NCBI GenBank assembly: GCA_030248195.1
Contig: JASAND010015551.1
Span: 1-64,000, forward strand
Direction of reading: 5' to 3'
Length of the DNA stretch: 64,000 nt
DNA from: Trissonchulus latispiculum
Lineage: Eukaryota; Nematoda; Enoplea; Enoplida; Ironidae
Below, in pieces: positions 16,401 through 37,102 of this stretch. Both the position numbers and the translations under genes were made by a program. Below the pieces are notes generated by a model. It made no database searches. It saw only the letters and a list, made by a program, of their open reading frames with translations, and was not told the origin of the DNA. Within the stretch, counting starts at the first letter, position 1; every line of letters begins with the position of its first letter.

Positions 16401-18012
16401 ATGTAGGTACGTTAATTTGTCATGTCCTGAGCTATCTACACAACCAATTTAATATGTTTTACCGTTTACAAGCCTAAAGCCAGCTTTCTGTGGTTGCTGC
16501 ATAACAGTGCAGCACGATAGCAGCACCGCACCGCGCTGCGACTATGCTCATCGTGTTCAGCGACCCCGATAACCCTTATATTCGTCCCACTAGATGATCC
16601 AAAACTGCATATTTAGGCCTATTTTTGACTATTTCCTGTAGGGTGGGAAATTTTCCGAAAATGGCTATTTGGCAGGACCAGCTTTGGGGCGGCCGCCTGA
16701 AAGATCCTGGACAGATATCGAAAATCGCCCTCGTTATGACACGCTACCCATCCCAAAGTTTCTTATGCAACAATCTGCGTGTCTCTAGCTTGTTCACTGA
16801 GCCCTGCGGCTCTGACACAAAATTGGCCTTTTTGGCCAAAATAGCGGTTAAGCCACCTTTGGCCGGCCGGCCAGGTCACATGTCGGGTCAGACAGCGAAA
16901 AGCAATCGAAAATGTTCACTTTCGGGATATATACGTTCAGAAAAACCAAACTTCGCCTGCTGAAAATGCCCAGATCGTTCTATCATTAAATCAGAAAATT
17001 GCACTTTTCCGAGCGTGACTTACACGGAAAAAACAAACGGACCTAACTTGTCCGGAAGCGAAAATTTTCAAAGTTGGAGAAATTTTGACCAAAACTTTCT
17101 TGCGACTTGTAGTACTCGTCGTGCTGATTCCAACGATACCAAATTTGTCTAGTTTCGTTGAGTATTTAGCTGGCACGGTGCTCGAGCAGGTCTCTAAGGG
17201 CCGCGCAGCGCCTTTTATACTCATATTATAGGGGAGCGCGAGCGCGCTCCCCTATAATTATGTGTAGGGGGGAAACTTTAGCATGATGACGTCAGCATGT
17301 AAGCCTTTCACCCTCAGACATTTAAAATTTTACCATTCACACACAGTTTTTAACTATTTTGAGTGTATTATATATTTCAATATAGTTTTAAGAATTTTTC
17401 GGGTCGGAGGTGCTGTAGTGACAATCTTAGTTTCGTTCGTTCTTTCAATTATTTTACAATTTACGCTTTTAAATAATTCAAAAATGGTGTGAAGCAAATA
17501 CAAAGCACAATTCTTGCGTAATTTTCGCAAAACTCAACCGATTTTGTTGAACTCTGAGAGATTTGATCTAGCACGAAGGCAGACGGCTGCGCTAAAAGTT
17601 AAGTTTTTCGAACTTTTAAAATTATTAGATTATTGATGAATAATGGTTCTAAGAGACCAGGTGTGCATTGAGTTTTACCCATGCATTTTAGCAGGTTTGA
17701 TGAGTTTCGTTTTATTGTTAAAAGGTTTAACTTTGCAAATAAACGGATTTTCAACTCAATATAGTGATTTCGTTAGTTCGGAAATGTGTTTAAATTATCA
17801 AAACTGCAGATTTCGTTTAGAAACCATCAACTATTAGCCATGTCATACTCGCACACTTTCTGGCGCCGTTCTTTGGTTTGCTTTTGCTTTTGTTTTTTAG
17901 TAAATTCGTTAAAAGGGGAGCCTGCTTCATTGCAGGCTTCTGTGCCTACTTTTCGATTACTCACCGGCCAGGACTAGTGCTCTGGGACTCGACTGTTGGC
18001 AACCCAAGCTAG
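16401..18012. other. Intergenic sequence before the LTR element
   Basis: No gene could be supported. A 112-codon plus-strand frame at 16625-16963 and a minus-strand frame at 16991-17224 lack any recognisable motif. A perfect short palindrome sits at 17225-17258 (listed separately). The rest, up to the target duplication CTAG at 18009-18012, looks unremarkable. Confidence 0.4.
17225..17258. repeat. Perfect 34-bp palindrome (16-bp arms, 2-bp centre)
   Basis: ATTATAGGGGAGCGCG, then AG, then its exact reverse complement. GC-rich centre, AT-rich outer ends. It could be a binding site, a hairpin in RNA, or a relic of a foldback. Confidence 0.9.
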
Positions 18013-18556
18013 TGTGAAGTTAGCACCGACAGGAAAGATATAAATTATACTTAAGTTGCTAAGCCTAAGTGAATTAGTATTGCATTTCGACAAACGTTCA
18101 ATGATTTAACATTACTTCTGTCTAAATTCTTAGGTCTGGCTAGCTAATACTTGATGTTCGCCATATTGGGTAGGTTTAGGCAGCAGTTGTGGCTGTAAGT
18201 TGGTGAAGAAAGGTTGGGTAGTTGTCATTGGGTTCGAATTTGGGGAGATTACTTTTGGGTTTTTGGTTAGTTCCTTTGTCGCACTGTCGGCTTTTGCCGG
18301 GCGTTTTGGTTGTGTTCTGTATTTTGGTAAAGTTTATGTTTTTGGTTAAAATTAATGTTTTGTATTAACCTTGTCATCAAGTTTTGCCGAAATTACAATA
18401 AAGCGTTGTAATCGTTTCTCTGAGTTTCAGTTGGTCAGGATCCTCTATTTCTCCAGCATCACACACCACCGGTATTCACCTGTAGTTTAGTCTTATCCTA
18501 GTAGTCAAAAGTCAGGCAACAGCATTTTACTAAGATTCGTATAGTCAAACTTCACA
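18013..18556 (+). repeat. 5' LTR
   Basis: It starts TGTGAAGTT and ends AACTTCACA, so the tips form a 9-bp inverted repeat with TG...CA ends. A TATAAA lies at 18039-18044, and a polyadenylation signal AATAAA at 18397-18402. It is about 98 per cent identical to 36555-37098. Confidence 0.95.
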
Positions 18557-18558: not shown

Positions 18559-18574
18559 TGGCGACCGTGTCATG
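18559..18574 (+). promoter_or_regulatory. Primer-binding site
   Basis: TGGCGACCGTGTCATG begins 2 bp after the LTR. The TGG start pairs with the CCA tail of a tRNA. The sequence resembles sites described for tRNA-Arg-primed insect elements, from memory; the tRNA identity is not verified. Confidence 0.7.
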
Positions 18575-18580
18575 TGGTAG

Positions 18581-20817
18581 ATGCTGGAGGAGTGTGACGG
18601 TCTTGACCCAAAATTTTATCGAGATTTAGAAGATCGACTTCAAGATATTCAACGTCTTTTTGAATTTTCGCAAAATTTAGATTACCCGGACGAATATAAC
18701 GATTTAGTTTTGCGACAGAGGTGCTGTGAGCAAGCGCCAGTAATAAATCGGGGGGACCCGCGCGAGCTTGGTGAATATACTGATCCGCCTCTCCAAGATG
18801 GGGTTCCACCTGGAACTCGAGGGGGAGCTCCTTACCGTGCTTGGGGGATTCCCTATATCCCCACCACAATCCCTCTGCAAACTTGGGGGAAAATTCTACG
18901 CGTAATCAAAATATTCCATGTTGTCGTGCTCAAGTCCCGGTCAGTAGCAGAGGTCCACCCCCCCCCCCGCCAGTGGACCCAGGCGGGGGGTTCCTCCCAG
19001 CTTCAAACTTCGGCCTCCAGTACACAGCAAATTCCGCGGCCGTCATATTCTCAGATGTTGAACAAAGCTTTTGGTCCTCCAGTTACCTCTCCCAATCAGA
19101 TGGTGCAGAATGGGGGGCGAACCCCCCAAAATTCCTCCCAACCCCTCCTCCCCCGACGCCCACTCCAGAAATTCAGGGAGGAAATTCAGCTGCGGCTGTA
19201 GGTCTAGAGCAGGTTTGTGTCGTTAATACGTCTCCTTCGGAGGCTACGGGAGGTCCGGCAGCTCCCTCGGGTCAATCTGTGCTACCGTCTGAGGAGGAAA
19301 TTTTCGCGGCGGCTGCTGCTGTCGTGCGGGATCCAGAAGTTCGTGATCTCCCTCAGGCGCACCGCTTGGAAAAAATTTCAGATTTCTATAGGGGGTTGGT
19401 GGATAGGATGACAGATCAGCTTGTTGCAGACCGGCGGGCTTTTCTCGGACTTCCACTAGAGTCAGGCGGGCTTGCGGGGGGTTCGACCCCTGCTGCCTCC
19501 CAATCCGGTCCTTCATCCTCAGTGGCCGGCTATGTCCAGTCGGAGTCGAATGGAGGCGGAGCCCCAGTCTCTCCGCAGTCTCAATATTCATATGGTACTG
19601 GACAAGCGACGATGATTTCCACACATAATCAGTCTCAGCAAAATCCGTGGCCAGAAAACGCTACGCCTCAGCCTTCAGTCCCTCCTCCGGCCCAAGGACC
19701 GCCTCCAGCTCAGTCAAATGTCCCACCTCCCCAACAGAATGGACCTGGTCAGTATAATCCTGGATCTACTTCGCACGCAGTGCCTGAACCGCAGCCTCAG
19801 CAACAGCAGGCTCCGCCACATCAGGCGGGTGGCCCTCAGGCTGGTGGCTATGGGTATTATGATCCAAATTACTATTACTATGCTCAGTACGGCTATTACG
19901 ATCCGAATTTGTATTTTGATCTCAATCAGCAGCAATATTTTGAGTCTCAACAGTCTCAACCTCAGTTGGCTCCTATGTATCCGGACCCTGTGCCGGGTAC
20001 TCCGCAGAATTAGGGGGACCAGCAGTCTCCAAATTCGGCACAGCCGGACCAGACAGTTTGCCAGGTGGCCACTGACCACTCAGGGGGGGCTCGTCCTCGG
20101 TCGAGGCCTCATCCCACTCCAGCTACTATGCAGGCTACGGACGCCTCAGTCGGACGTCATAATGCTCAATTATACCGTACGTATATGGCAATTTTACATG
20201 ATATTCCTCGTTTTGAGCCGACTTTTGATTATTTTGAAGATTGGTTACCACAGTTTGTTTCAGCAGCTACCGTGCAAGGGATCCCTCGGAACCAGTGGGC
20301 CCGCCTAATGTTCAACAAACTGTCTGGTAAAGCTCTCACTTTTTCTTCGAAAGTTGGTCCTGAAGTTGTTGAGTCACTGGACGAATTTATACGTATGATG
20401 TCCGCTCAGTTCCCGAAGCCTCAACAATCAGTTTCAGAAAAATTTCATCGTTTTGCTCAAAGAGTCCAGCAGCCTGGGGAAACCGTCCGCCAGTATGTGT
20501 CGGAGCTGCAATCTCAGGCTTTGGAAATTTGGCCATCGCAGGCAGACTGGGACAGGCACTGCGTGCAACAACTTTTTGACGGTATTCGTTCGGAATATAC
20601 GACGACTTTGGCATCAAACTTCGGAAAAGGTGAGCCTAAATTGGACGAAATCCTACGTATCCTGGACAAATTGGAATCACGGATTTCAGAACCTGGATTG
20701 GCCGATCAACAAGCCTTTGCGGCTCCAGTTTTTCATGTAGGCGCCCAGAATTCTTCCAGGGACGGGCTGCCCCCCTCGATTCGACTCCTGCGACCAGGCT
20801 GGAGCTGCGGGAGATGA
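18581..20817 (+). pseudogene. gag: Gag, matrix and capsid region (broken)
   Basis: The ATG at 18581 is the first after the primer-binding site. The frame runs to 19201, then coding shifts to the frame of 18841-20013; the switch zone contains a 13-base C run near 18957. That frame meets an in-frame TAG at 20011-20013 and continues in the same frame to 20817. Residues before 20013 are proline/glutamine/serine-rich with a tyrosine-rich patch ('YYDPNYYYYAQYGYYDPN'). The segment 20190-20660 matches a Retrotrans_gag capsid core ('WARLMFNKLSGKAL', 'FHRFAQRVQQPGETVRQYV', 'FDGIRSEY'). It would form the particle shell. Whether the TAG is a mutation or a suppressible stop cannot be told from one copy. 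Confidence 0.8.
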
Positions 20818-21707: not shown

Positions 21708-21718
21708 TATTTGGATGA

Positions 21719-22444
21719 ATGAAGCTGAGCCGTCGGACTCGTGGTGTGCGGGGGGCTCTCCCATTTTGGCGGGCCCGGGGTCTCCCTATACAGCTCCGCC
21801 CGAACCACCTGTCCAAGAACCTGCACCAGCTGAGGCTACAAATTGGGTCCAGGACGACAAAGGGGGAGGAAGTTCCTCCTCCAGAAACAGAGGCTACACC
21901 TGCCTCACAGGTAAATCCTCATAGCGTGGTACAAATTTCTGATTTGATGGGCCATTCAGCTCTCGCAGAACCGGGGGATGTCCCAGAAATTGACCTCGAA
22001 TCTGTTCTCGCATCGGGTGAAAACACTCCAGCATTTTTGATTGATGTCAACGGTCAAAAATTGGTTGCAATTGTAGATACGGGAGCGTCCATTTCTATCA
22101 TTAGTACGGGGGGCCTGGAACCTCTCCTCAGGGCGGGCGCAGAAATCGTGGTTCATTACCCGGATTCTATCAAAGCACGAACACCAGTAAGTGACTATTT
22201 GAAACTAATAGGGAAGGCGTTTTTGCCTTTTAAAGTTGGTCAAATTCAATTTGGGTGGCATTTTCATGTTGCTCCAGATTTTTATCGGGATATTTTGCTA
22301 GGTACTGATTTCATGAAGGCTTTTTCTTGGGATATCATCCTTTCTCAGAATAAAGTTTACATGGGTACGATGAACCATGATTTGCTCACCCCTGACCAAT
22401 TGAGAGCTGAATGGAATACCCGGGACGGGATTCAACAGTTTTAG
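21719..22444 (+). CDS. Retroviral-type aspartic protease
   Basis: The catalytic motif 'VAIVDTGASISIIS' lies at about residues 115-128, and the second signature 'DILLGTDFM' at about residues 191-199. Both are typical of Ty3/gypsy proteases, which cut Gag-Pol. The DTGA active-site triad is intact. The first 60 residues are a proline- and glutamate-rich linker of no known function. The following reading frame overlaps in another frame from 22411, so Pol continues by a frameshift or has been broken here. Confidence 0.9.
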   Translation: MKLSRRTRGVRGALPFWRARGLPIQLRPNHLSKNLHQLRLQIGSRTTKGEEVPPPETEATPASQVNPHSVVQISDLMGHSALAEPGDVPEIDLESVLASGENTPAFLIDVNGQKLVAIVDTGASISIISTGGLEPLLRAGAEIVVHYPDSIKARTPVSDYLKLIGKAFLPFKVGQIQFGWHFHVAPDFYRDILLGTDFMKAFSWDIILSQNKVYMGTMNHDLLTPDQLRAEWNTRDGIQQF

Positions 22445-23071: not shown

Positions 23072-24506
23072 TTGGATTGGGAGGTTAAAACCTTGCAGTC
23101 ATGTTTGTTTGCGGGTGAGAACTTGGTCGATTTTTCACAAGAAACGAAAGATTCTTGGACAACGGTACCAGTGGCGTTTTCGGATGTCGTAGAGTCTTGG
23201 GCGTCAGAGTCTAAGTCTCACCCTGAGCCTCCTGCTGGTCAGGGACAACAGGGTGAGGGCGTGGACCCCAACCAGGTGCCTTCCGTTACTGTTCTTACTG
23301 ATCTGCCTAAAAAGTTTCGAAAATTTTTGCGTCGCAAGATCCATCCGGGAGAACCTGGGTTCGAGCCCCGTACGTATAGAGTGACCACTGAAAAATATCA
23401 CCCTACTGATTTGTGTTTTGACGAGGCCTTTTCACGTATCCCTCAGAACGGGGATATTGTACGTACTCCGGAAGAAGAGGTCGAGGTTGACCCTCTGTCG
23501 GCAGCTGAATCGGTAGCAACTGCTCTTTTTGCAGATGCAGCAAAACGTGCTCTTTTGAACTGGAAAATTAGTTTGAAGGATTGTTGTTTGTCCCGTCGTA
23601 ATCATCGGCGGCTAAAACTTATGATTCTAAATTTTCCTGACATTTGGGGCACTACAGGCGGTTTTGGTAAAACCGATATTGACTATCATTATATCGAAAT
23701 TGAGCCAGGAAAACGGCCTATCCGTGCCCGGGCGTACAAAGTTAGCCCGGCACAGAAGAAAATTATAGACGAAAATTATCCGTTTGGTTGGAGCAGGGCC
23801 TCATACAACCCTCTCGGTCTCCGTGGGCTTCCCCGATTATTCTAGTAGCAAAGAAAGATGGGGATTGGCGTCTTTGTGTTGATTATCGCTAATTAAATTC
23901 TGTCACTAAGAAAGATTGTTACCCTCTCCCTCGAATTGATGGTGTTTTTGAACTTATTTTGGGCCATTGTATCTTTTCGAAATTGGATTTAGCCTCGGGG
24001 TTTCATCAAATTCCTGTTTATCCGGCAGATCGGGAAAAAACTGCTTTTATTACTCATTCTGGGTTGTATGAATTCAAAGTTATGCTAAGTTATTTTAGTT
24101 TGGGTTGTGTAACGCCCCCAGTACCTTCCAACGGATAAGCGATCGTATCATGGAAGGGTTTATTGTTTATATTGATGATATTCTAGTTACTAGTCCAACT
24201 CAGAATCACCATCTGCAGCGTCTCCTTGATATTTTTCAACGTTGCGCAAAAGAGCATGCTTTGCTAAAACTATCAAAATAAGAATTTGCGCGGAAACAGA
24301 TGGCCTTTTTGGGTCATATCCTTTCAGAATTTGGCATTGCTACCAATCCTGACAAAATTCGGGTGGTCCGTCAATTCCCTGTCCCTCAATCTGTTAAGGA
24401 TATTCAAAGTTTTTTGGGTCTAGCGGGTTATTATCGTCGTTTTGTTCCTCACTTTGCAAAAATCGCCAAGCCTTTGACTCGACTTTTGAAAAAAGGTATA
24501 TACTGA
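23072..24506 (+). pseudogene. pol: Reverse transcriptase (broken)
   Basis: The amino part is open to 23845 and contains the usual entry 'YHYIEIEPGKRPIRARAYKV'. A frameshift near 23790-23845 then moves coding to another frame with 'VAKKDGDWRLCVDYR' (23845-23889), followed by an in-frame TAA, 'KLDLASGFHQIPV', and another frameshift near 24100. The catalytic YIDD box is at 24168-24179. A further TAA at about 24278 precedes 'MAFLGHILSEFGI' and 'QSFLGLAGYYRRFVPHF', the thumb/connection motif. All landmarks of a Ty3/gypsy RT are present in order, but at least two frameshifts and two stops make it inactive as it stands. Confidence 0.9.
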
Positions 24507-25173
24507 ATTTGTTTGGGACTCCTCTTGTCAAGTTGCTTTTGAGTCCTTGAAGGAAAAATTAATTACAGCACCCGTTTTGATCTATCCCAATTTTACGAAA
24601 CCTTTTACTCTTGTCACTGACGTTAGTTATCAGGATATAGCCGCTATTTTGCAACAAGCAGATGATAAGGAAAAATTTCATCCAGTAGCGTACGCGGCCA
24701 GAGCCCTTCATGCATCTGAAAAGAACTACACTGTTACCGAATTGGAGGCTCTCGCTATCTTTTTTGGGATTTCATATTTCCAACATTACTTTATTTTACA
24801 TTAATTTGACGTGATCACGGACCATCAGGCCCTGGAATACATCCTGGGCGATGCCGCAAAACCTAAGACGGCTGAAGGGAGGGTGGCCCGTTGGCGTGCT
24901 TTTATAGAACAGTTTCGTTTTCGCGTTATTCAAAAACCTGGTTCCGTCAACGGGGCAGCGGACGCATTATCTCGCAATCCGCCTGCCATTGCTGGGGTTT
25001 TTGTTGAGTATCCGAAATTTCCGGAATATCTTTTTGCTCTGTTAGATGACGTTATAGATGACGAAGGCCCCGATGATGGTCCTCACTCTGTGCCGATGCT
25101 CGCGGCAAAGGAAATTAGGTCTGAGGCCTTTAAGGCTGACCCGTTTACTTCTGCAATGATTGAGTTTTTGTAA
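24507..25173 (+). pseudogene. RNase H domain (broken)
   Basis: 'PFTLVTDVSYQDIAAIL' carries the first catalytic aspartate; 'YTVTELEALAIF' the glutamate; 'VITDHQALEYIL' the next aspartate; 'GAADALSRNPP' closes the domain. A stop (TAA near 24802) lies between the second and third motifs. A frameshift just before 24547 separates it from RT. It ends at TAA 25171-25173, where integrase sequence would normally follow in frame. Confidence 0.88.
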
Positions 25174-26402
25174 AATGATAAACTTCCGAAAGATTTACAG
25201 CTGGCCGCGTACGTACGTAGTTCTGCTTCTAAATTTGTCTATGAAAATGACATGCTATACCGTTTTCAAACTGATAAGAAAGGAGTTCCCTTAACTGATG
25301 CTATTCGCCTTATTGGGGTCCCCAATGATTGTCGTCAATATGTTCTCAAAGAATGTCATAATGACTTTTTGGGGGTTGTCATGTTGGGAGACCTAAAATG
25401 ATGGGAATAATAGCCGCTAGATACTATTGGGATACCCTTTCTCGTGATGTTACACGGTTTCTCGAGTGCTCTCAAGTGTGTGCGGCTTGCAACCCCGGTC
25501 CTCGCAAGCCTCAAGCCTATATGAAATTTTTTACTCCGGTAGAGGCACCATTCGAAAGGATCAGCATGGATGTCATGCATGTTCCTACTACTTCTGCGGG
25601 TCATTCCAAAGTTTTAGTGATGGTTGATTTTCTGACGCGTTGGGGGTGGGCCTTCGCTATGGGTAATGAACAGACTAATACTATTGCAAAACTTTTGGCG
25701 GAACAAATTATTGCAGTTCATGGGGCCCCTCACGAAATTTTGACTGATCGGGGCACCCCTTTTTGTTCTACTCTTATGGATGAGCTTTGCAAACTTATGG
25801 GAACGCGAAAAGTACGTACTACAGCATATCACCCACAGTCGAATGGTGCTTGTGAACGCCTAAACGGTACTCTTAAAGGCATGTTACGCAAATGTATGTT
25901 GGCTTTTGAGCTGGAGTGGGACACCCTTCTCCCTTGGGTGCTGTTCGTGTACCGCGCAGCCCCACATGCCTCTACCGGAGAGTCTCCATATTATCTTTTG
26001 CATGGACGTGATCCTCGTTTGTTTTCTGAAAACTTTTTGAAAATGCCTGATCCGACAACTAGAACTTTCAACTCGTCGTACGTGCAAGACCTGCGTAAAC
26101 GTTTACGTTTTTGTCGTGATTTACTGAAAGAGCATATGGAAAAAATCTTGAAAAAGCGTAAAAACGATTATGATGCGAATGTTAAGAAAATTGATTACAA
26201 AGAAGGTATGCTAGTATGGAAAGATATTGCAAAAGCGAATATACCAAAGGGTGCAAGCCGCAAGTACTTGCCAGTCTTCGAGGGACCGTTCCGGGTGGTC
26301 AAAGTTCTTGCACGTCCAAATGTCGAAATCCAGTCTACTACCAAAACAGATCCCCCTACGGAAAAAATTCATGTAAATCGCCTCAAGCCGTTCCTCACCT
26401 AG
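25174..26402 (+). pseudogene. Integrase with GPF/Y tail
   Basis: The amino-terminal zinc-binding part is split by a frameshift in the T5G5 run near 25367-25376, which separates its histidines from the frame of 25398-26402. In that 334-codon frame the cysteines are C28 and C31. The catalytic triad is D58 ('SMDVMHVP'), D117 ('ILTDRGTPF') and E153 ('NGACERLNG'), spacing DX58DX35E as expected. The tail has the GPF/Y-type module 'KYLPVFEGPFRVVKVL' and ends 'HVNRLKPFLT'. There is no chromodomain. The catalytic core itself is uninterrupted. Confidence 0.92.
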
Positions 26403-27139
26403 TTCTGTCTGATATTGTTCGTATTTTGTATTTTGTATGTATGCCTCACCTATGTCTTTTGTTCATTTTATAGCTTTTTGTTCTAGCGTGGTCTCATCTT
26501 TTTCTTTGTTTCAGCTTTTAACTATATGTTACTTTTACTATTTTAGGCGCTTATATAATTGTGTATCTTGTCTGGCACCAACCTGGTCCTTTCTGTTTTG
26601 GGTAAATAAAATTTTTCTTAGATTCTTTTGATGTTTCTTATAACGTATATACGTATTCTTTCTTAGATTAAATTTTCCAAATTCTGCCGTCCTTTTCATT
26701 CTTTTAGAACTATACTGTTGAATCTTCTTGAATTGTACGATATGTACTTCTTTCATTTTGATGTACTGAATTTTGAAATTCCTTGAATACGTACTGTCGG
26801 GTACCTTTCAAGTGCTCGTTTTTTGACGTTTCTTCTGTTTTGCTCTCTATTTTTATGATTCCAATTTTTCTCTAAATTTTTCAGTTTGTCGTAATGAGTT
26901 TGGCTTTTCTTTTAACTTCTATGTAATGCACTTTATTTATTTTTGTTTCAGAACTGGTTTGGTCACTTGTTTGGTTGCGAGTCCTGTTTGTGTTCAGTGG
27001 TCAGGAGGCCTTTTGGGGATTCTTGTCCACGTTTGGTTTGTTGTTTTGGACCGGATCAGGAAAATTGATCAGGTGGTATTTTTGATTATTTGAGTGCGTA
27101 GGGTCAGTTAGTCTGCCACAGTGTCTGTCGAGCAGAAAA
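26403..27139. other. Spacer between integrase and third reading region
   Basis: T-rich sequence with no supportable ORF. It may carry the splice acceptor or leader for the third region: an acceptor-like TTTTTGTTTCAG lies at about 26940-26951. Confidence 0.4.
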
Positions 27140-29335
27140 ATGGTTCGAAAACGCCGTCACCAAGATAAATCTGAAACGTCCGAACGGGAGTCTAGTCCTG
27201 AGCAACCGTTGTCAAAAGCTTTACAGGAAAAAGGGGCGACCCGGGACTGGAAAAAGCTTTCAGAAGTGGGTGCCCCTCCTAGCTCTCAGATTCCCTTACG
27301 CCGCTCTCAGCGGACGAAAAAGTCTCGCACTTCGGAATCAGATGCAAGCTATCAGCCATCTGAAAAAGATACCTCAGAAGAGGTCACAGTTGATGGTGAA
27401 ACAGTCTCGGACCCCTCTCCGGGTCCTGCCTCGAAATCTCAGAAAGCGACACGTTCACAAAAGGCAGCGACTCCACGCCGGTCTCGATCTTCTCGGAAAC
27501 GGGAACGCTCAGAAAAACGGAAATCTAACACAGAACCGTTGCCCCCCATTTCTTTACTAGATTTGAGCCTCGTTTTTGCAGAAAAGCCTCCCCCTAAGAT
27601 TGACTTTGGCTCCGCCTCCGACAGACGCTGGCGGGAGGACTGGCTGAATACAATTCACCAGGCTACGTTTTTGCCTGAAAAGTTACGATCAGCTACTGCC
27701 ATTATTACTGACATCTCAGACCTCTTCGGGGAGGTCGAAAATTTATTGTTCTGGGCTAAGGAGGCGGGATTTCTTGTTCTGGATGTTGAGGACCATTCTC
27801 AGAAATGGCTGGATATCCCCACGGGCCAGTCTGCGACGACCTTGCAGTTTGCAGTCCCAACAGATATCACAGCTTTTCGCGAACGAATTGATGCCCTGAA
27901 TCCGACTGTGGAATCCTAGTTTGAAACTGGGTTGAGAATCACGGTGATGATGGTTCACGTCATCTACCTCCAAGTCCCCTCCTGGAAATTATTAAGCTAT
28001 GCGTTGCAACCACTGTTCTATAACACTCCGTTTTCGGTTTTGGCGGTTGGCGCTTTGAGCGATGCGCGTCGGATTCTTGGCAACTTGAGCATTGATGCCA
28101 GAAATTCCTTAGTTGATATCAACCATTTCTACCGCTTTGCTTATCGCAGAATGGCCCTTAAGGGACTCCCGCCTGAGAATGACCCTGAACATCCAGTGCG
28201 GGGCCCACATATTTGGTTTGACGAGAATACTCAGCGGTGTCTCCTCCCTGCTAAACTGCATGAGAACCTCTCCATGGGGTGGTTATAGCGACACGTTCTC
28301 AAATATCCTTGGCGTTGTGTAAGGAAATTTCTGCGCACGGTTTTATGTCCTTTTTGAAGCCTTCTGAAATTGTGTACGCGATCAAAGATGCAGTCGACCT
28401 AGTTTTGGTTGTTCAGCGCTTGCTACATGCGTGCCCGTCCTTTCTGACGAAGCACTTTCAACTTCTGCAGCGTACCAAAACCGTGAGCCAAGTTTCGTAG
28501 CTTGATACCCTAGAACGCTTGGAAGGCTCGGCTCTTGCGCATATTATGGATGAGCCTGTTTTCCGACCTTTGACAAAATTTCTAGTTGCGCATATTGATG
28601 GTGACAGGCGTCACTCTCAAAAATTAGTTTATGTCAAAATTTTGTCAAAATCTCCGCCTTTGGACCTTTTGCCAGATCAAGACAAACTGAACTCTGACTT
28701 GTTCACTTCTGTGGGGGATCGCCAAAATCCTGCTTTAGTCCCGAGTGCACAGCAAATTGAGTTGGCCGGTGAAGAACCGGAATACACTTTTGCTCCGAAA
28801 GCTCCGAAACCGGACAAAGAGCGCAAGTAGCGCAAATTGGACGAAAAAGCTGCTGAACAGCATGAGGTGCCAGAGGGGCTTCCCTCAGAAATTCTGGACG
28901 TTTCTTCAAATTCTTCGGATGCGGAAAATGAGCCCAGGCCGGAAACGCCTCCTCCGAAATGGGAAGTGTCCTCGCGGCCACCTTCTCAGGAGGAAGTTCC
29001 AGCTGGGGACTCGCCCTTTCCCTTCACCCCCCCCTCCGTCCTCTCATCCCATCCGCTACCCGCTCTCCTCTTTCGAAACAGTCAAACCAGCCGGCAGCGG
29101 CTTTTCATGTTGCTTATACGGAGGAAAATCAGTCTCCCTGATGTCGCGTGTTGATTTTTCTATGCCTGAACCTTTGCAAATTACTTTTTCCAGGTTCTAC
29201 TTTTCCGGAGCAAGGGGGCGTCCCGCCTGCCGGCACTCCATCTGCAGGTTTGGGATTGACTCCCGACCCTATGTTTGCTCCTACTCCGGGCACAAATCGC
29301 CCTTCTCGTTCATCTTCAGTCCCGGCTTCACGTAC
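27140..29335 (+). pseudogene. Third reading region of the LTR element, amino-terminal part (function unknown)
   Basis: The ATG at 27140 opens 259 codons, basic and serine-rich at first ('RKRERSEKRKSNTEPLPP'), then globular ('WREDWLNTIHQATFLPEKLR', 'LLFWAKEAGFLVLDVEDHSQ'). A TAG at 27917 interrupts the frame, which then stays open to 28288. Coding continues in the next frame from about 28279 to about 29150 with TAGs at 28498 and 28828, then shifts again to a proline-rich stretch up to the LINE insertion near 29335. I recognise no domain in this part. It resembles an accessory gene placed where other elements carry env. Together with the part after the LINE it would be about 1300 residues long. 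Confidence 0.6.
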
Positions 29336-31863
29336 TACGGTACTTCTTTTGATCTTGTTCAACATGTACTTGAACCGACAAGGGATGTGGCTGTTTTGGA
29401 TTTAATATTTGCGAACACATCCTCCCTCATTTCAGAAACAAAACGTATGCCCCCATTAGGGAACAGTGATCACAACGTTGTTACTTTTTCTATTAATGCT
29501 GCATGCTTGAATTCTGTACCAAATAATTTACCTACAAAGGTCTGGGCTAATTCTGATAACGCTGCTTTGTATGGGTGCTTGCAGGCTACGAACTGGGGTT
29601 TGCTGTTTAAAGACAAATCTGTTAACGAAATGTGGACAATTTTTAAGGATATTTGCTTGAACCTCATTGATATCTTTGTACCGACGAAACTAACGGGCAA
29701 GCGGAAACACCCTCAAAGGTACTCTAATAATACCAAGAGAATGTTGGCCAATAAGAAAAAAGCGTTTCGAAAGATGAAAAAGAGTCCTTCTTCTGATAAC
29801 AGGAAAGCGTATAAACAAGTTGCTAAATTTTGTTCTGAATCTGTAAAAAAAGATAACCTGAAATATGAGGCCAAATTTTTGTCAAATCGAAACTCTAAAG
29901 CATTTTACTCCTATGTTAAAAAATCTTTGTCTCCTCATAGTAGTTTGTCTCTGCTAGTTGATGGTGACCGCCAGGTGTCTGGGGATTTTGATATGTCGAA
30001 TGTGTTTGCTAACCAGTTTTCTTCTGTTTATGTTACGGATGATAATAATCTGCCTACGGTTCCGGAATATGTTGTCGATGAGGATATAGCCCATTCACTC
30101 TCTAGCTTTAGAATCACCCGAAAACATGTAGAAAATGCCATTTCGAAACTGAAGCCAAATTCTAGCCCTGGGCCTGATGCCCTCCCAGCTGTTTTCTTTA
30201 AAAGGTTTAGCATACTTCTGTCTGTTCCTCTCCAATTAATTTTTCATGAATCCTTTGTAACAGGAATAGTGCCTAGTGACTGGAAGCAAGCTATAGTTGT
30301 TCCCATATATAAAGGCAAGGGTTCTAAGGCGGGAGCGGCTAACTACAGGCCTGTTAGTTTGACATGTATTTGCTGTAAACTGATGGAACGAATACTGAAG
30401 GATGAACTTTTTGATTACTTTACTAAATCCGGTTTTATATCTTGTCACCAGCACGGTTTTGTCTCTGGTAGGTCAACTCAAACACAACTTTTGAACTGTG
30501 TAAAGGATTGGGTCACATTTATTGACAAAAACATTCCGGTAGATGTAGTTTATATCGATATTAGTAAAGCCTTTGACACGGTCAGTCATTTGAAGCTGCT
30601 CTACAAACTGAAACGCTATAAAGTTCCTGATATATTTTGTAAATGGATAGAAAATTTTCTAAACGATCGCTATCAGGTGGTTCGGGTGAACGGGGTGTAT
30701 TCAACACGGTGTCGGGTTCTGAGTGGGGTTCCTCAAGGAAGTGTGTTAGGTCCACTATTGTTCTTGGTGTACATTAATGATGTAGTCAGTAGAGTTGAAC
30801 AAAGCTATGTAAAAATATATGCGGATGATACAAAAATATATTATACATGTGGTAGTGATGTTGACCGTAGTGTACTCTTACATGATATCGAAAACGTTTT
30901 TGGGTGGGCGAACGAGAACCAATTGAAAATTGCTTTGGAAAAGTGTGTTTTAATGCATTTCGGTGGAAACAACAGCGAATTCGATTATACTGTGAGCAAT
31001 GTTCAGATTCCAGTTGTAAACTCTATGAAAGATCTAGGAATAGTTGTAGATGATAAATTAAAGTTTTCCCAACACTGCTCATCAATCAGTGTTAAAGCTT
31101 TGACTCGTATGAACATTATTTTTAAGTCATTTCGATCACGAGACCGGGATTTTTTGTGTGCGATGTACACTACTTATATTCGACCTATTTTGGAGTATAA
31201 TTCGCCGGTATGGTCTCCGTATTTAAAAAAAGATATTGAGAGAGTAGAAAACGTTCAAAGGCGGTTTTCAAAGCGGATTCCGGGTTTGCGCAATAAAACG
31301 TATTCTGAGCGTTTGGCAATTTTGGGATTAGAAAGTTTGGAATTGCGTAGGATCAAAGCAGACCTCAATCAGTGCTTTCGCATAGTGAAAAATCTCGACA
31401 ACATAGATTTTTCTGACTATTTTGCCTACCGTCAGGATGTGGGATTAAGGGGACATAATTTAATGTTAGACTCTGTACACTGCCGAAGAAATGAGAAATT
31501 AAATTTTTTCAGTAGCAGAGTAGTTAAATTGTGGAATAACCTCCCCCTTGAAGTTGTCAAGGTTGATTCACTTGAGGCTTTTAAATCTAAACTGAAGGAT
31601 ATAGATTTGTCGATTTATACAAAGATCTTTTAGCATTTCTGTGGCTATTTATATACTGCACATGTTTATACTGTTTTCACGTAGTTTGTGGATGTAGATA
31701 TTAGTCTGAACTAGGTTTTATCTGATTGTTTTATATTGTTGTATGTACGGATGCATGTAAGTAGCTGTGTATACAGTTCTTTGTATTCCTTTTCAGTAAA
31801 TGTTTTACTGCGTGACTATAATCTTTACTGAATAAACCAATTGCTTGTTTGTTTGTTTGTTTT
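29335..31863 (+). mobile_element. 5'-truncated non-LTR retrotransposon (CR1/L2/Jockey-like LINE) nested in the LTR element
   Basis: The insertion splits the third reading region of the host LTR element. The 5' end is cut inside the endonuclease domain, as is usual for incomplete reverse transcription. The 3' UTR (31634-31839) includes AATAAA near 31830. It ends in a short tandem tail of TTTG units (about 31842-31862), a 3' end style typical of CR1/L2-related LINEs. No clear target duplication was found. The exact 5' junction is uncertain by about 10 bp. Confidence 0.88.
29336..31633 (+). CDS. LINE ORF2 fragment: endonuclease C-terminus and reverse transcriptase
   Basis: About 765 codons are open without a stop. 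The start is the tail of an apurinic-type endonuclease ('LVQHVLEPTR', 'VLDLIFAN', 'LGNSDHNVVTF'). The RT follows with 'SSPGPDALPAVFF', 'NYRPVSLTCICCKLMERI', 'QHGFVSGRSTQTQLL', 'VVYIDISKAFDTVSH', 'LSGVPQGSVLGPLLFLVYIND' fragments, and the catalytic YADD at 30818-30829. The C-terminal part ('LEYNSPVWSPYLKKDIERVE', 'SERLAILGLESLELRR') is typical of CR1/L2/Jockey-group LINEs. Being unbroken, it is younger than, or has decayed less than, the LTR element around it. The frame also reads into upstream LTR-element sequence from 28745, which is accidental. Confidence 0.93.
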   Translation, partial: YGTSFDLVQHVLEPTRDVAVLDLIFANTSSLISETKRMPPLGNSDHNVVTFSINAACLNSVPNNLPTKVWANSDNAALYGCLQATNWGLLFKDKSVNEMWTIFKDICLNLIDIFVPTKLTGKRKHPQRYSNNTKRMLANKKKAFRKMKKSPSSDNRKAYKQVAKFCSESVKKDNLKYEAKFLSNRNSKAFYSYVKKSLSPHSSLSLLVDGDRQVSGDFDMSNVFANQFSSVYVTDDNNLPTVPEYVVDEDIAHSLSSFRITRKHVENAISKLKPNSSPGPDALPAVFFKRFSILLSVPLQLIFHESFVTGIVPSDWKQAIVVPIYKGKGSKAGAANYRPVSLTCICCKLMERILKDELFDYFTKSGFISCHQHGFVSGRSTQTQLLNCVKDWVTFIDKNIPVDVVYIDISKAFDTVSHLKLLYKLKRYKVPDIFCKWIENFLNDRYQVVRVNGVYSTRCRVLSGVPQGSVLGPLLFLVYINDVVSRVEQSYVKIYADDTKIYYTCGSDVDRSVLLHDIENVFGWANENQLKIALEKCVLMHFGGNNSEFDYTVSNVQIPVVNSMKDLGIVVDDKLKFSQHCSSISVKALTRMNIIFKSFRSRDRDFLCAMYTTYIRPILEYNSPVWSPYLKKDIERVENVQRRFSKRIPGLRNKTYSERLAILGLESLELRRIKADLNQCFRIVKNLDNIDFSDYFAYRQDVGLRGHNLMLDSVHCRRNEKLNFFSSRVVKLWNNLPLEVVKVDSLEAFKSKLKDIDLSIYTKIF

Positions 31864-31865
31864 AG

Positions 31866-33588
31866 GCCTCGTCCATTTCTGGACAACCTGGGACTTCCGG
31901 ATCTGCGGAGGCTTAGGAGACCTCACAGTCTCTTTCGACTGATCCTAGGTATGCTAAACGGGCTTTTCCACTTCACAAAGATGAACATCTTCCTCCTTTG
32001 AAATTGGACATCCCCTTGCAGACCTTTTCATTAGGACCCTGCAACAATTCCACCGTCTCATACGATTCGGTGGCCTGACGAACATTTCTTGTCCTTTGCG
32101 AGTATGAATCAACAGTTTGAATGTTCGGCAGCCCCTTGGGAACATCCTGCAAATTCGAAGTCACTATTGTACAAGTATTCCGCGCGTTATTTGGTGGAAA
32201 AACCGGTTCCTCGTTTTCATGCGAATCCACCGCCACACATTACGCTGCGTAGTGGGTTTTCTCTCGATCGGGAAATCAAGTCTATGAAACCTCCGTCGCT
32301 GGCCCTTACCATTGATGACGGTGCCCTTTTGGGGGCTCCTAAGTACAAAGGTCCACAGGAAATTGATTCGCATTACCATCAGGCAGTTTGGTCAGCTATT
32401 CTAAATGACCGCAGGGCAGTCCCATTGCGGGTTTATTCGGAATTTGAGTGGCAGGTTGTGACCTTGCCTGATTTTTCCTCAAAAGTGGATCCTACACTTA
32501 TGAATCCTTATTTCACGAATTCTTTCAAATATTGGGATAACTATTTGAAGACTTTGAAATATGCTCCCTTTTCACTGACTGACTTTGCGATGGAAAAGTA
32601 TTTCGATATTATAAAGACTCTTTTTCCGGAGGCAAGCCCTGATATCAAATGGGATAAGTTGGAGCCTCTTTCTCATCCTTCCTATCGCATTCAGTTGGAA
32701 GAACCTAAATATTGGAAACTTTCTATCAAATTTCCGGCTATTTTGCGCGATGGTGAAGTTCTTTTTGAGTCTTTTCAAGTTGTTGGTTTTGCTCCTTACA
32801 AAGTTGCCGCATTAGCTGATCTTGTTTCGCGATTTTTTCCGTTTCTCAATATATATCCATCTGTTTCGCGTTTCCAGCAGGTGGCAGATTTGCTTAGGGT
32901 ATGGTCAGTAATGTCTAAGAAAATGGTTCAGGTGGCAAAGGAAGTCACTGATGAGTGTTTGGGTCATGTTTTGATGTGTGCATCGAACTTTAACTATTTT
33001 CATCCGATTGCTAGTTTTCAAGGCGCTTATGACCCGGCTTCTAATATGTTTCGCCTTGAACCGAAAAAGGTTCCGGGTGCAAACGGATGGGTTGAATTGT
33101 GGGGTTTATACTTTCAGACATCTGAGCAAGCTTACCAATTTCGGAAACTTTTCTTTTTTGCTTGCTGGCACGCCCCAGCCGAGGCATGAGCGCAGTATTT
33201 GAATCCATTTTACTGCAAATTTGCGGCTGAACAAATTTTGGGTTGGTTGCCACCAGCTTCGGTTATTCGCAAAATGTCGCAAGGCAAAGATATGCATGTA
33301 CGGGCGTTTGTCATGCTAGAGGTTCTTCGTGCCAAGGCTAAGGCTTGCCCAGAGTTTGTAGACTTTTTGCGTGATTCTGGCTGCCGACTGCTGGTTGAAG
33401 CAACCTATGACCCATATTGGGGAATTGGGTTGAACAAAAATCAATTGAACAATTTGTCGCATAATCAGATTATCAGCGAGGTCATTCGTGTGCATAAGGA
33501 ACAGAACCGCAGCCGGTTAGGCAAGGTTATGATGATTTTGCGCGCTGAATTGTTCCCAAATTTGAATCGTGAAATGGAAGATCTTTAG
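31866..33588 (+). pseudogene. Third reading region, carboxy-terminal part with NADAR domain
   Basis: After the LINE, coding resumes with a TAG at about 31914, shifts frame near 32060, and is then open from about 32065 to 33588 except for one TGA at 33187-33189. The first 290 residues (to about 32960) are globular but unrecognised. The final part, about 32970-33588, matches the NADAR (YbiA/DUF1768) superfamily. Motifs in order are 'CASNFNYFHPIASF' (the usual SNFyP), 'QTSEQAYQFRK' (E at 33124-33126; the usual T-EQAYQ-K), 'FVMLEVLRAKAKACPEF' (the usual M-----aKf-qnp), and 'LLVEATYDPYWGIGL' (the usual LvEas--D--WGiG). NADAR proteins act on N-glycosidic bonds of ADP-ribose-like or riboflavin-precursor substrates. 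The key motifs are intact; only the TGA lies inside the domain. Confidence 0.82.
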
Positions 33589-36538
33589 AATGAGCGGCAG
33601 CAGGCCCACAGGGCGGCGATCGGTCGGATCGTCCCGCCCTGAGTTCTCATGCAGTTTTCTTGTGTATATTCTTGCCCCTTTCTTTACGGGTTGGTGCTAA
33701 AATTGGTGCTTAAAAAGTCTTTTATTTTTTCTTTCGTCTTTTACTGTTTTATCATGGGGGGCGGGGGGTCTTTTCGTTTTCTTTTCTTTTTACTATTTTT
33801 ACATTTAACTTTTATCTGCTGTGTGGGTTATTCTACTTGATTTCTTGATGTCTGTCGTTCTCTTTTTGACTCTTTTCGATGATTTCTTTACAAATTAATT
33901 AGAAAGTCTTTTGATAAATTTCTCTTCGTTTTCGATCTCTTGTTTTAACTTATAAATTTTTGTTCACTTGCGTATTCTATTTATTAGTTCCTTTGAATTT
34001 TGTAAATATTTCGAAAATTTTCTTCTTTACCTTTGATTTTAGTACGTATAAACATTTCTCTTTGATACATTAAAGTCAACTTTCTTGACTATATCTCGTT
34101 TGAATTTTCACTTTTTCACTGGAATAACTTTAATCTCTGATTTTCGCTGCTTTTTCTGAATTCCACACAGCAGATTGGACTTTTTCTTTTTAACCTTTTT
34201 ACAACTTTTAACTTTTGGTGCTCCTACCTTTTTCACACTCTCTTTTGGAGTGTTAAGTTGCGGGCTGCTCCGGTCTCCGCACACCGGGTGAGGTGGGCCG
34301 CACGCTCCTTAACATTCTTTTTCTTTTTTGATTCCGTTTCTTTTAGTTTAGCCTTGAGATTCTCTTTGATAAGCACATGCCTATGGGGTTTCTCCTCCGC
34401 TAAGCGGGGCTGCGTCTCTCCCATTGGTTCTGGAGCTACTAAAGTCATAGGTGGGGCTGTAACTATGTATCGTCAATCTTTTGTCTTGTTTACTTTTTGC
34501 CATTTGCTAATGATCTTTTGATTCATGATTCTTTTGTGTTTTATTTGATTGCCTTAATTTTTGTTTTTGTGTGTTTTAGCTAACATTTTGTCTGCTGTGC
34601 CGGTGCCGACCCCCCATCCTCAGTGCCGGGTGTGCTTCCCAGGAATTGTGTCAGCTGGTTTGGGTTGGATCTTACCGGCCATTTGCTTCGGCGCTGGGTC
34701 TGGCGCGGTTGGGTACCGCCGTGACTGGTCGGTGGTTGTAGGTGCTGGGTCCCTACTGGGTTCTTCTCCTGCCAGGTTTCTGGACTGTTTGTTACGGCCA
34801 TGGTCTGGTCTTGGGTTGTTTGGTTGGGCGGCCGAGGATTGGTTTCGGTCTGGTTGGCCGTCGGTTCTGACTCTGGGCCCCACAATGCTTTTGTGTGGTA
34901 GCCATGTGCATTGGTACCATTTGGTGGTGGCCTTTTTTGGCCTCCTATTTGGACTTTTTGTGGCGTCCTGTGCCCTTTGTCTTGATTCCATCTGGGATGG
35001 TGGTCGGCCCAGTGCTTTGCCTGCGGCTTTCCGGCCAATCTGCTATGTCGGTGGGCATACCTTGCCTGCTCACCTGTTCCATCTTTGGGAGCCTTGCTCT
35101 GCTGGCCTCCCTGGTTCGGCCCTTCTGGACTTTTGGGGTGCTTTGCGTCCTTTGGCTGCTTCTACGGTGACTGGTGCCATGGTCGTTCTGGTACCTGTGG
35201 CTCTCCTGCCTCTTTTGCCGTGGGGCAGGCTTCTTTTGCCTGCTTTCGTCTGTCATCTCGTCGGCTCTTGGTCAGGTTTGGCCGTCGGTTTTCCGACCTT
35301 TGGAAGGTTTGGGGGCCTTCTGCCTTTCCTATTGGCCTTTTTGGTCTGTGTGAACTTTTTCCTGGTCTACCTGCCGCCATGGGGTTGCTGGGCCAGGCGG
35401 TGCACGGCTTGTTTGGCCATAATTTGTGCCTAGTCCCAGTCCCGCTTGACTTTGATCTTGGTTTGGTTGGGTTAGACTCAGTGGACTGTGACAGGAGACC
35501 CTTCGAGGCCTGGTAGGGTCCGGCTGGAGGGGCGTTTTGTTCGGTGACTGTTTCCGGTCAGGAATTGCATTGTCTGCGGTGCTGGAGAGTATACCGCCAG
35601 TGTCCCTTCCATCGCACACCTGTGACACTGTCCCCCCATCCTAATCTTGTGTGATTTTTGTTGTTGTTTAATCAGTATTGGTGATTGGTATTTTTCGAGT
35701 TCTATTATTTGGTTGTGATTTGCAGAGAGGGAGCCACAGGGATCAAAATTTCTAAATTGAGGTTCAGTTGACTACATTTTCTTTCTTCTTTCGTCAGGGT
35801 GCCCGCCACCTCGGTATAGCCGTTGTAATCGTCGGTGCTGGTATAGCTAGTTTTTCACTATCAGTTTTCTGTCTGTTTTGTTTTTCTACTAAAAGCGGTT
35901 GCACGGTTTACGGTTTCACTTTTCTTTGTATAAAATTTTCCTGCTTCTTTTTCTTGAAAAATTGCAATTCTTTGATGACATCATTTCTTCCTGCCTTGTT
36001 GTTACTAACCTAGTATTCTCTTTTGTCTGGCATTGTACGTTCTACTTCATTCAATTGTTGGCTGCTACAATTACTGTACAATTTTTGATTCTTTTGTTTA
36101 TTATCTACATGCATAATAATTTTTCTTGTCATCTTTATACATATTTACAATAGTTACAATATTTGCAATAGTGGGTTTTGTTCTCTTGTCTGATCTTGTT
36201 TCCTGTCGGTGCACCCTACTCTTTTAGTACCTGGGTGATCTCGGGCGGGAATTTGTAACTTTTACGTAGGTGTTGAAGTAGGTAAGTAAGTTTTCGCAGT
36301 AGTTTGTCAAAAATGTCTCGATTCAGTTACGAGTAGTTTTACCGTTGGCCGGTTAGCATGTTAGAAAAGTTGTGTGCTCAACCGTGGTATGGTGTATGTT
36401 CACCACTGTCGTTTCTTTTTATCCTAACGTAATTTTCACAAAAAGTTTTACCTTTACTAGTACCTAAGGTACCTGTGAGTAACCTTCTTCTTATCATGTC
36501 GTCTAACTGAGTGGACCCGTCCGAGGCCGCCCGGGGCC
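33589..36538. other. Long 3' non-coding stretch of the LTR element, with an A-poor island
   Basis: T-rich to 34540, then a G/T/C-rich, A-poor island at about 34600-35640, then T-rich again. In the island several frames are open on both strands (34561-35433 plus; 34580-35038 and 34945-35256 minus). All stop codons need A on one strand or T on the other, so base composition alone explains this. The 290-codon plus frame would encode a hydrophobic multi-pass protein, so an env-like gene cannot be excluded, but I see no supporting motif. Confidence 0.45.
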
Positions 36539-36549
36539 AAAAGAGGGGG
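36539..36549 (+). promoter_or_regulatory. Polypurine tract
   Basis: AAAAGAGGGGG lies 5 bp upstream of the 3' LTR, the normal place for the plus-strand primer. The same 12-mer with its following T occurs exactly at 21339, 22928 and 23045 inside gag-pol. Confidence 0.85.
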
Positions 36550-36554
36550 TATTA

Positions 36555-37098
36555 TGTGAAGTTAGCACCGACAGGAAAGATATAAATTATACTTAAGTTG
36601 CTAAGCCTAAGTGAATTAGTATTGCATTTCGACAAACGTTCAATGATTTAACATTACTTCTGTCTAAATTCTTAGGTCTGTCTAGCTAATACTTGATGTT
36701 CGCAATATTGGGTAAGTTTAGGCAGCAGTTGTGGCTGTAAGTTGGTGAAGAAAGGTTGGGTAGTTGTCATTAGGTTCGAATTTGGGGAGATTACTTTTGG
36801 GTTTTTGGTTAGTTCCTTTGTCGCACTGTTGGCTTTTGCCGGGCGTTTTGGTTGTGTTCTGTAATTTGGTAAAGTTTATCTTTTTTGTTAAAATTAATGT
36901 TTTGTATTAACCTTGTCATCAAGTTTTGCCGAAATTACAATAAACCGTTGTAATCGTTTCGCTGAGTTTCAGTTGGTCAGGATCCTCCGTTTCTCCAGCA
37001 TCACACACCACCGGTATTCACCTGTAGTTTAGTCTTATCCTAGTAGTCAAAAGTCAGGCAACAGCATTTTACTAAGATTCGTATAGTCAAACTTCACA
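36555..37098 (+). repeat. 3' LTR
   Basis: Same length as the 5' LTR, with about 12 substitutions between them. AATAAA at 36939-36944. Followed directly by the target duplication CTAG. Confidence 0.95.
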
Positions 37099-37102
37099 CT
37101 AG

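What the first reader, a model, noticed from the sequence alone, without database searches (positions are those of the whole stretch)
32970..33588. NADAR domain encoded at the end of a Ty3/gypsy-type retrotransposon
The carboxy end of the third reading region shows the NADAR (YbiA/DUF1768) blocks in order: SNF-type start, SEQAYQ with its glutamate, M-----AKAKACPEF, and LVEATYDPYWGIG. NADAR enzymes cleave N-glycosidic bonds of ADP-ribose-like compounds and riboflavin precursors, and some bacterial members have been reported to remove ADP-ribose from guanine in nucleic acid. An LTR retrotransposon carrying such an enzyme in the env position could use it to undo host ADP-ribosylation or to edit nucleotide pools. 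The domain call is from visible motifs; the role is inference.
Basis: partly seen in the sequence, partly recalled or inferred. Interest (0 to 1): 0.88.

Follow-up and report, generated by a model that had tools for sequence, protein, structure and literature searches.

The report
Retrotransposon gene joining exonuclease and NADAR
A large virus-like jumping element, present in many copies in one (probably animal) genome, carries behind its integrase a third gene that ends in a NADAR enzyme domain and is predicted to begin with an exonuclease; the protein would likely strip ADP-ribose tags from the element's own RNA or DNA, which hints at a host defence not yet described.

Summary
Window 32035-33588 encodes, in one frame broken by a TGA, a divergent NADAR domain at the end of ORF3 of a 19.1-kb LTR element (18013-37098; LTRs 97.8% identical, TSD CTAG; protease, RT, RNase H, integrase in Ty3/gypsy order). 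This copy is dead: frame changes, an internal deletion and a LINE lie inside ORF3. It is no chance capture. A capped search of the same genome scored 149 further copies (42-92% identical), 19 in open frames of 1,600 aa or more; NADAR lies downstream of 42 of 51 close integrases, mostly 5.35-5.48 kb away; key active-site residues are kept in the five relatives read, and dN/dS to one of them is 0.085. The start of ORF3 is predicted to fold as a DEDD 3'-5' exonuclease. A second giant LTR lineage shows the same predicted layout, and Polinton-like elements carry NADAR too. NADAR in Ectocarpus Gypsy Pol and DEDDy ORF3s in rotifers are in print; my searches showed no report of the fusion at the env position. 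Likely role, untested: cleaning ADP-ribose and 3' ends of the element's nucleic acid. New variant of a known kind.

The parts
18009..18012 (.). target-site duplication CTAG, left
18013..18556 (+). 5' LTR, TG..CA, 544 bp
   Evidence: 532 of 544 identical to the 3' LTR; K2P 0.022
20014..20817 (+). gag-like open frame (weak); a CCHC-like knuckle follows in the frame 20640-21707
   Evidence: PF03732 E 0.013, below cut-off; the knuckle is read by eye
21719..22441 (+). aspartic protease
   Evidence: PF13975 2e-7, over cut-off
23893..24278 (+). reverse transcriptase, in broken pieces
   Evidence: PF00078 2.3e-6 (just under cut-off) and 1.4e-7 (over it) in successive pieces
24490..25170 (+). RNase H, in two pieces
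   Evidence: PF17919 2.6e-31; PF17917 1.7e-4, under cut-off
25398..26399 (+). integrase
   Evidence: PF00665 9.8e-15; 120 matches scored in the own genome, itself included
27098..33639 (+). ORF3, broken copy: six collinear blocks at 80-92% protein identity to a 1,727-aa open frame of a relative, with three frame changes (two before the LINE, one after), a 391-aa internal deletion near 29140, and in-frame stops
27600..28500 (+). predicted DEDD 3'-5' exonuclease domain (approximate limits, in broken frames)
   Evidence: weak profile matches in the window itself; predicted fold of the relative's same segment
29343..31863 (+). non-LTR retrotransposon (LINE) inserted in ORF3 (limits to within a few bases)
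   Evidence: PF00078 1.2e-33; flanks of the insert align to adjoining parts of the relative
33004..33552 (+). NADAR domain at the C end of ORF3 (limits carried over from the relative)
33187..33189 (+). in-frame TGA inside the NADAR domain
33640..36538 (+). ~3-kb T-rich stretch between ORF3 and the 3' LTR; its length is about the same in 5 of 6 other copies measured
36539..36549 (+). polypurine tract candidate
   Evidence: read by eye
36555..37098 (+). 3' LTR
37099..37102 (.). target-site duplication CTAG, right

Best explanation
The region is the C-terminal NADAR domain of ORF3, a third gene between the integrase and the 3' LTR of a 19-kb Ty3/gypsy-type element, and ORF3 is predicted to be a fused 3'-5' exonuclease-NADAR protein that likely removes ADP-ribose adducts and trims 3' ends on the element's own RNA or cDNA. 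Shown: the element, the domain, its place in many copies, kept catalytic residues in the relatives read, low dN/dS. Predicted: the exonuclease fold. Inferred: that the substrate is ADP-ribosylated nucleic acid (known NADARs hydrolyse guanine-linked ADP-ribose, PMC11543638 and PMC11125620), that both domains act on the same molecule, and that the benefit is survival of replication intermediates against a host ADP-ribosylating activity.
For: NADAR in both halves and over the curated cut-off in relatives with open frames. NADAR downstream on the same strand for 43 of 52 integrases of >=81% identity, window included, 29 of these 43 at 5,347-5,482 bases; both elements read from the 67-72% sister group also end ORF3 with NADAR. 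In 6 of 7 other contigs on both capped hit lists an LTR of this family follows NADAR at 2,765-3,831 bases. dN/dS to a relative with an open frame 0.085 for the NADAR C half and 0.138 for 32089-33186. Active-site E, K, E, D, W kept in the relatives read of subfamilies A, B, C and in two more. The start of ORF3 is predicted to fold as DEDD exonuclease (pLDDT 73.6, pTM 0.77; the 31 PDB hits at E<=0.001 are EXD2, RNase D, Rrp6/exosome, Exd1 and Egalitarian chains, best EXD2 1.7e-6). A second LTR lineage has both domains in one ORF. Two nucleic-acid-type enzymes in one protein point to a nucleic-acid substrate.
Against: No substrate, expression or activity data. The exonuclease call by sequence is weak: window pieces score E 0.47 and 0.68, and a reverse-strand control piece scores 0.32; Pfam finds no exonuclease in the relatives' ORF3 starts; subfamily C lacks the tyrosine of motif III, and two rows of the other lineage lack the aspartate of motif II. 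The fold model used four distant rows of the other lineage in its alignment, and the 31 PDB matches have moderate target TM-scores (0.29-0.54) with rmsd 5.9-27 A. The other lineage's model is of low confidence overall (pLDDT 49.6). The window copy is broken and lost the tryptophan; the GR arginine is not evidently kept. NADARs of the glutamate branch may have other substrates (riboflavin intermediates; PMC11543638). In the same genome NADAR also occurs in short ORFs beside other genes.
Confidence: 0.45

Rival explanations
1. The NADAR domain acts on host antiviral ADP-ribosylation: it removes ADP-ribose from proteins or hydrolyses ADP-ribose-derived signals, as proposed for NADAR of RNA viruses and phages; the exonuclease is a separate tool in the same protein.
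For: Viral NADAR and Macro domains are argued to counter host ADP-ribosylation (PMC9503650, passages). NADAR recurs in several different mobile elements of this genome, as expected of a counter-defence gene.
Against: Measured NADAR activity in the papers seen is on guanine-linked ADP-ribose and riboflavin intermediates; the fusion to a predicted nuclease suggests nucleic acid. No host target known.
Confidence: 0.25
2. ORF3 is a nucleic-acid-binding packaging or RNP protein; both enzyme folds are kept for binding, not catalysis.
For: Some DEDD relatives work as binders (EXD1, Maelstrom; discussed in PMC5408684, passages). Long low-complexity linker in ORF3.
Against: NADAR active-site residues kept in the five relatives read, which differ widely; DEDD acidic residues kept in the three window-type subfamilies.
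Confidence: 0.15
3. YbiA-like N-glycosidase on riboflavin or nucleotide intermediates that tunes nucleotide pools.
For: E. coli YbiA does this (PMC11543638, passages); the domain carries the YbiA-family glutamate.
Against: Score of the C half against the riboflavin N-glycosidase equivalog model far below its cut-off (27.4 vs 73.7 bits); no reason for fusion to an exonuclease.
Confidence: 0.07
4. Chance capture or assembly artefact limited to this copy.
For: The copy is broken and the window domain alone is under the Pfam cut-off.
Against: Many copies in the same place, open frames, low dN/dS.
Confidence: 0.01

Closest known systems
NADAR-bearing Gypsy lineage of the brown alga Ectocarpus (PMC12477816, passages read)
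   Same: Ty3/gypsy element with a YbiA-family NADAR domain in the families of one lineage
   Different: [quoted passage not shown] here at the C end of a separate ORF3 behind integrase, in a protein predicted to start with an exonuclease
DEDDy-exonuclease ORF3 of bdelloid rotifer LTR retrotransposons Vesta and Juno, shared with Athena/Terminon elements (PMC5408684, passages read)
   Same: RNase D-like DEDD exonuclease in ORF3, in the env position, in several LTR lineages
   Different: no NADAR is mentioned in that paper's main text (0 occurrences); here predicted exonuclease and NADAR share one ORF of about 1,700 aa
NADAR in ORF1 of Tx1 LINEs of Crassostrea gigas (reported in PMC12477816, passage)
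   Same: NADAR carried by an animal retrotransposon
   Different: non-LTR element, ORF1 position
NADAR of nidoviruses and other animal RNA viruses (PMC9503650, passages)
   Same: NADAR in the proteins of RNA-stage replicators of invertebrates
   Different: different replicon; no LTRs; not integrated
Guanine-ADPr hydrolases NADAR/YbiA (PMC11543638, PMC11125620, passages)
   Same: catalytic E, K, E and ADPr-contacting D, W
   Different: standalone or DarT-linked bacterial/oomycete proteins; activity of the present one untested

Membership tests
NADAR superfamily (PF08719) | profile match over the curated cut-off | tested here: met
   relatives with open frames 42.4, 51.5 and 39.6 vs 35.1 bits; the window's own C half is below it, 30 bits
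NADAR superfamily (PF08719) | catalytic glutamate and lysine seven residues on; second glutamate; D..W | tested here: met
   by alignment to the residues named in PMC11543638; the GR arginine is not evidently kept
NADAR superfamily (PF08719) | YbiA fold | tested here: inconclusive
   the only model that held a NADAR domain is of the other lineage, and that part had low pLDDT
NADAR superfamily (PF08719) | ADP-ribosyl hydrolase or N-glycosidase activity | not testable with these tools
   needs bench work
YbiA branch of NADAR (glutamate rather than aspartate or histidine in the last strand) | glutamate at the E125-equivalent | tested here: met
   LVEA/LAEA in window and relatives
Ty3/gypsy LTR retrotransposon | LTR pair with TG..CA and target-site duplication | tested here: met
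Ty3/gypsy LTR retrotransposon | order protease, RT, RNase H, integrase | tested here: met
   several relatives have the integrase in an open frame of 2,614-2,618 aa
Ty3/gypsy LTR retrotransposon | place in an RT tree | not tested
   the window RT is in broken pieces
[quoted passage not shown]
   NADAR lies behind integrase
DEDD 3'-5' exonuclease (start of ORF3) | acidic residues of motifs I, II, III | tested here: met
   invariant in the three window-type subfamilies; tyrosine of motif III in A and B only
DEDD 3'-5' exonuclease (start of ORF3) | DEDD exonuclease fold | tested here: met
   predicted model only, moderate TM-scores
DEDD 3'-5' exonuclease (start of ORF3) | curated profile match | tested here: not met
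   no exonuclease family in Pfam for three ORF3 starts
Envelope protein (retrovirus/errantivirus) | fusion glycoprotein in the env position | tested here: not met
   no glycoprotein family by Pfam in the relative's ORF3 or in window pieces

The most novel reading that the evidence does not exclude
Several different mobile elements of one animal genome (two giant LTR lineages and Polinton-like viruses) have converged on NADAR because the host ADP-ribosylates foreign RNA or cDNA; the exonuclease-NADAR fusion would be a dedicated nucleic-acid clean-up and counter-defence enzyme, the mirror image of an as yet undescribed animal DNA/RNA ADP-ribosylation defence against retroelements.
Probability: 0.25. 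Interest if true: 0.93.

Novelty: new variant of a known kind. Interest (0 to 1): 0.78.

Why it matters
The physiological role of NADARs in eukaryotes, animals included, is called unclear by the people who work on them (PMC11125620, passages); nematode SNA-3 in trans-splicing is one case (PMC9303266, passages). An enzyme domain kept at low dN/dS by a retroelement says that ADP-ribose chemistry may matter to its life cycle. The domain is small, the assay exists, and some 300 natural variants were scored in one genome (two capped lists), so the question whether such cells ADP-ribosylate retroelement nucleic acid becomes testable.

Tried and rejected
Chance capture: rejected. Protein search: no relative of 32089-33186 among 3,349 candidates at E<=10, none of the C half (1 candidate, E<=0.01). 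Viral contigs: none. phmmer of the exonuclease part of the other lineage's ORF against PDB sequences: nothing relevant. Similarity between the window ORF3 piece 32089-33186 and the other lineage's ORF: none by BLASTP. Whether the two LTR lineages took NADAR once or twice: unresolved, deep ultrafast bootstraps 24-47 (a first tree failed because one row was empty; the window's half domain, one phage protein and one LTR-element row were left out of the second). One search failed on a program option and was redone. Sister integrases (67-72%): 1 of 68 has a NADAR of the capped list on its contig (C4075, which also holds a closer copy), so I read two of these elements: both have NADAR (the first stretch of C4643 ended before ORF3 did). 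Rfam, PADLOC, VIA-align, the genome-contig scan and the third protein search were not used. The genome search with 32089-33186 was unanswered and not repeated.

Full report
1. The observation. The frame 32035-33588 is open except for one TGA at 33187-33189. The part after the stop hits Pfam NADAR at 7.1e-7, 30 bits, under the curated 35.1. The part before it has no Pfam hit, but its last 77 residues hit PHROG 1017 at 1.1e-4 over profile 5-51, and the part after the stop hits the same PHROG over 84-155 at 1.4e-6. That PHROG has no name in the library; on the C half it covers the residues of the Pfam match. A profile built here from 22 distinct NADARs of the same genome plus E. coli YbiA and four phage proteins hits both halves, in order (E-values there are for single comparisons). 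Alignments with YbiA, phage NADARs and the oomycete NADAR 8bau put the window's SEQ glutamate and the lysine seven residues on at E43 and K50, the LVEA glutamate at E125, and YDPYW at D130 and W133 in the numbering of PMC11543638 (passages; I worked out an offset of two from the chain). W89 is absent in this copy and present in relatives; R79 of the GR motif is not evidently kept in either (by eye).

2. The element. Two 544-bp LTRs, 18013-18556 and 36555-37098, are identical at 532 of 544 places and flanked by CTAG on both sides (K2P 0.022). Inside lie, in order, a weak gag match, protease, RT in pieces, RNase H and integrase: the Ty3/gypsy order. Behind integrase comes ORF3, then a T-rich 3 kb in which Pfam named no gene in the one frame tried (34558-35430), then the 3' LTR. 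ORF3 of this copy is wrecked: against a 1,727-aa open frame of a relative it falls into six collinear blocks of 80-92% identity with three frame changes, lacks 391 residues near 29140, and holds a LINE at about 29343-31863.

3. The genome holding the window has 733.8 Mb in 21,732 contigs. With the C half as query, 1,109 first-look candidates gave 150 scored matches (the cap), all at E<1e-24: the window itself and 149 others of 42-92% identity; 19 of the 150 lie in open frames of 1,649-1,727 aa by my count of the table. With the integrase as query, 120 of 5,782 candidates were scored: 52 are 81-100% identical, and 43 of these 52 (window included) have a NADAR of the first list downstream on the same strand; 29 of the 43 at 5,347-5,482 bases, the other 14 at 3,986-10,378. 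Of the 68 others (67-72%) only one contig has a NADAR of the list, and that contig also holds a close copy; I read two elements of this group, and both end a long frame with a NADAR carrying the same E, K, E, D and W. With the LTR as query, 1,029 candidates gave 41 matches: seven contigs besides the window's occur in both lists; in six an LTR follows NADAR at 2,765-3,831 bases (window 2,970), five of the six at 2,765-2,951, and in C11750 the listed LTR lies elsewhere. So NADAR is a regular part of the family. Some relatives have open frames for both the integrase-bearing polyprotein (2,614-2,618 aa) and ORF3.

4. Selection. Between the window copy and the relative, dN/dS is 0.085 over the 132-aa NADAR half and 0.138 over 32089-33186, although the window copy is dead; most of the divergence therefore likely arose in working lineages. 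For deeper pairs dS is 1.7 or saturated. The C ends of three subfamilies, 35-56% identical to one another, keep the active-site residues.

5. The rest of ORF3. By eye the start of ORF3 shows the three blocks of DEDD exonucleases. Sequence support is weak and I report it as such: in a scan of 40 window pieces and 80 reverse-strand control pieces with a profile from the other lineage's ORF, the two exonuclease blocks are the best forward-strand matches after NADAR but at E 0.47 and 0.68, and one control scores 0.32; of 2,000 shuffles each, 2 and 7 reach the scores of blocks II and III, and 243 that of block I (pieces were chosen after seeing the motifs, and only 1,229-1,421 shuffles were reported by the program per block). 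Against the relative's unbroken ORF3 the exonuclease profile gives only E 0.015. Pfam names no exonuclease there. The acidic residues are invariant in subfamilies A, B and C, the tyrosine of motif III is in A and B; in the other lineage two rows lack the aspartate of motif II. AlphaFold2 on seven rows, four of them from the other lineage, gives pLDDT 73.6 and pTM 0.77, and the 31 PDB matches at E<=0.001 are chains of EXD2, RNase D, Rrp6/exosome, Exd1 and Egalitarian complexes, EXD2 first; target TM-scores are 0.29-0.54 (that the Egalitarian and exosome chains hold a DEDD fold is recalled). I take the fold as predicted, not proven.

6. A second LTR lineage. The strongest NADARs in the genome (150 of 150 scored over the cut-off, of 2,478 candidates) fall, in the 30 loci first cut out, into three settings: Polinton-like elements with packaging ATPase and a TBP gene, loci with a YqaJ nuclease, and LTR elements. 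Pfam was run on representatives (L007, L013, L020, L035-L037 and the LTR stretches); the rest were placed by shared ORFs. In the LTR elements an ORF behind integrase, open for 676-731 aa in the longer copies, ends in NADAR (2.8e-41) and begins with a fold matching EXD2, WRN and RNase D (pLDDT 49.6 overall, the first domain mostly 70-90, the NADAR part low). LTR pairs were found in two of four contigs tested (C4104, 94.7%; C16016, 93.3%; not in the stretches of C15666 and C10583). These elements also carry protein kinase frames and, in three read, a Monjiviricetes-type fusion-glycoprotein match before the protease, one of the three under cut-off. NADARs of the two LTR lineages form separate clades (supports 99.9/100 and 93/87), their relation unresolved.

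7. Mechanism. NADARs remove ADP-ribose from guanine (PMC11543638, PMC11125620; passages). DEDD enzymes trim 3' ends of RNA or ssDNA (PMC5408684, passages). One protein with both, kept beside gag-pol, most simply acts on the element's RNA or cDNA. This is inference. A role against protein or small-molecule ADP-ribosylation, as argued for viruses (PMC9503650, passages), is the main rival.

8. Known or new. [quoted passage not shown] PMC5408684 (passages) reports DEDDy ORF3s in rotifer LTR elements. My ten searches (NADAR with retrotransposon, Gypsy, reverse transcriptase plus ADP-ribose, Polinton, exonuclease; NADAR domain; YbiA with transposable element; DUF1768; giant LTR retrotransposon terms; DEDDy with ORF3) showed no title or passage on the fusion or on NADAR in the env position; four listings were cut (20 of 104, 20 of 22, 15 of 32, 20 of 33 shown), and only openly licensed papers were searched. 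Hence a new variant of a known kind, of high interest.

Noticed in passing
G000 at large; L006-L035: 2,478 first-look NADAR candidates, of which the 150 scored are all over the Pfam cut-off: a very large NADAR set for one eukaryote genome.
   Followed up: partly
L007, L037 (C11883): Polinton/adintovirus-like element with A32/IVa2-like ATPase, NADAR, a TBP-like gene (PF00352 5.7e-37) and a chromodomain integrase; the element name is my reading.
   Followed up: partly
L036:430-1797; L042:2056-9972; L047:3-6923: Monjiviricetes fusion-glycoprotein match (PF24664, 2.3e-9, 2.6e-6 and 7.5e-8; the second under cut-off) ahead of the protease in kinase-type LTR elements, in two of three inside the gag-pol frame.
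   Followed up: no
L036:8918-9997; L043:5041-6423; L045:1298-2449; L047:7131-8246; L044:6976-8082: Protein kinase frames in the same LTR elements, before or after the NADAR ORF.
   Followed up: no
L046:5981-8104, residues 392-488: Helix-helix-three-strand-helix run in the model that could be a dsRNA-binding-like domain between exonuclease and NADAR.
   Followed up: no
window 33640-36538: T-rich stretch (AT skew -0.48 at 34001-36000) whose length is about the same in 5 of 6 other copies; function unknown.
   Followed up: no
window 40478-41158: Integrase-like ORF of a second, different LTR-type element, 31% identical over 240 residues to the first integrase.
   Followed up: no
window 46712-52222: Near-identical ORF pairs about 2.5-3 kb apart (46712/49736 and 49260/51719): looks like a tandem duplication.
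   Followed up: no
window 15909-16407: Three copies of a ~150-base repeat.
   Followed up: no
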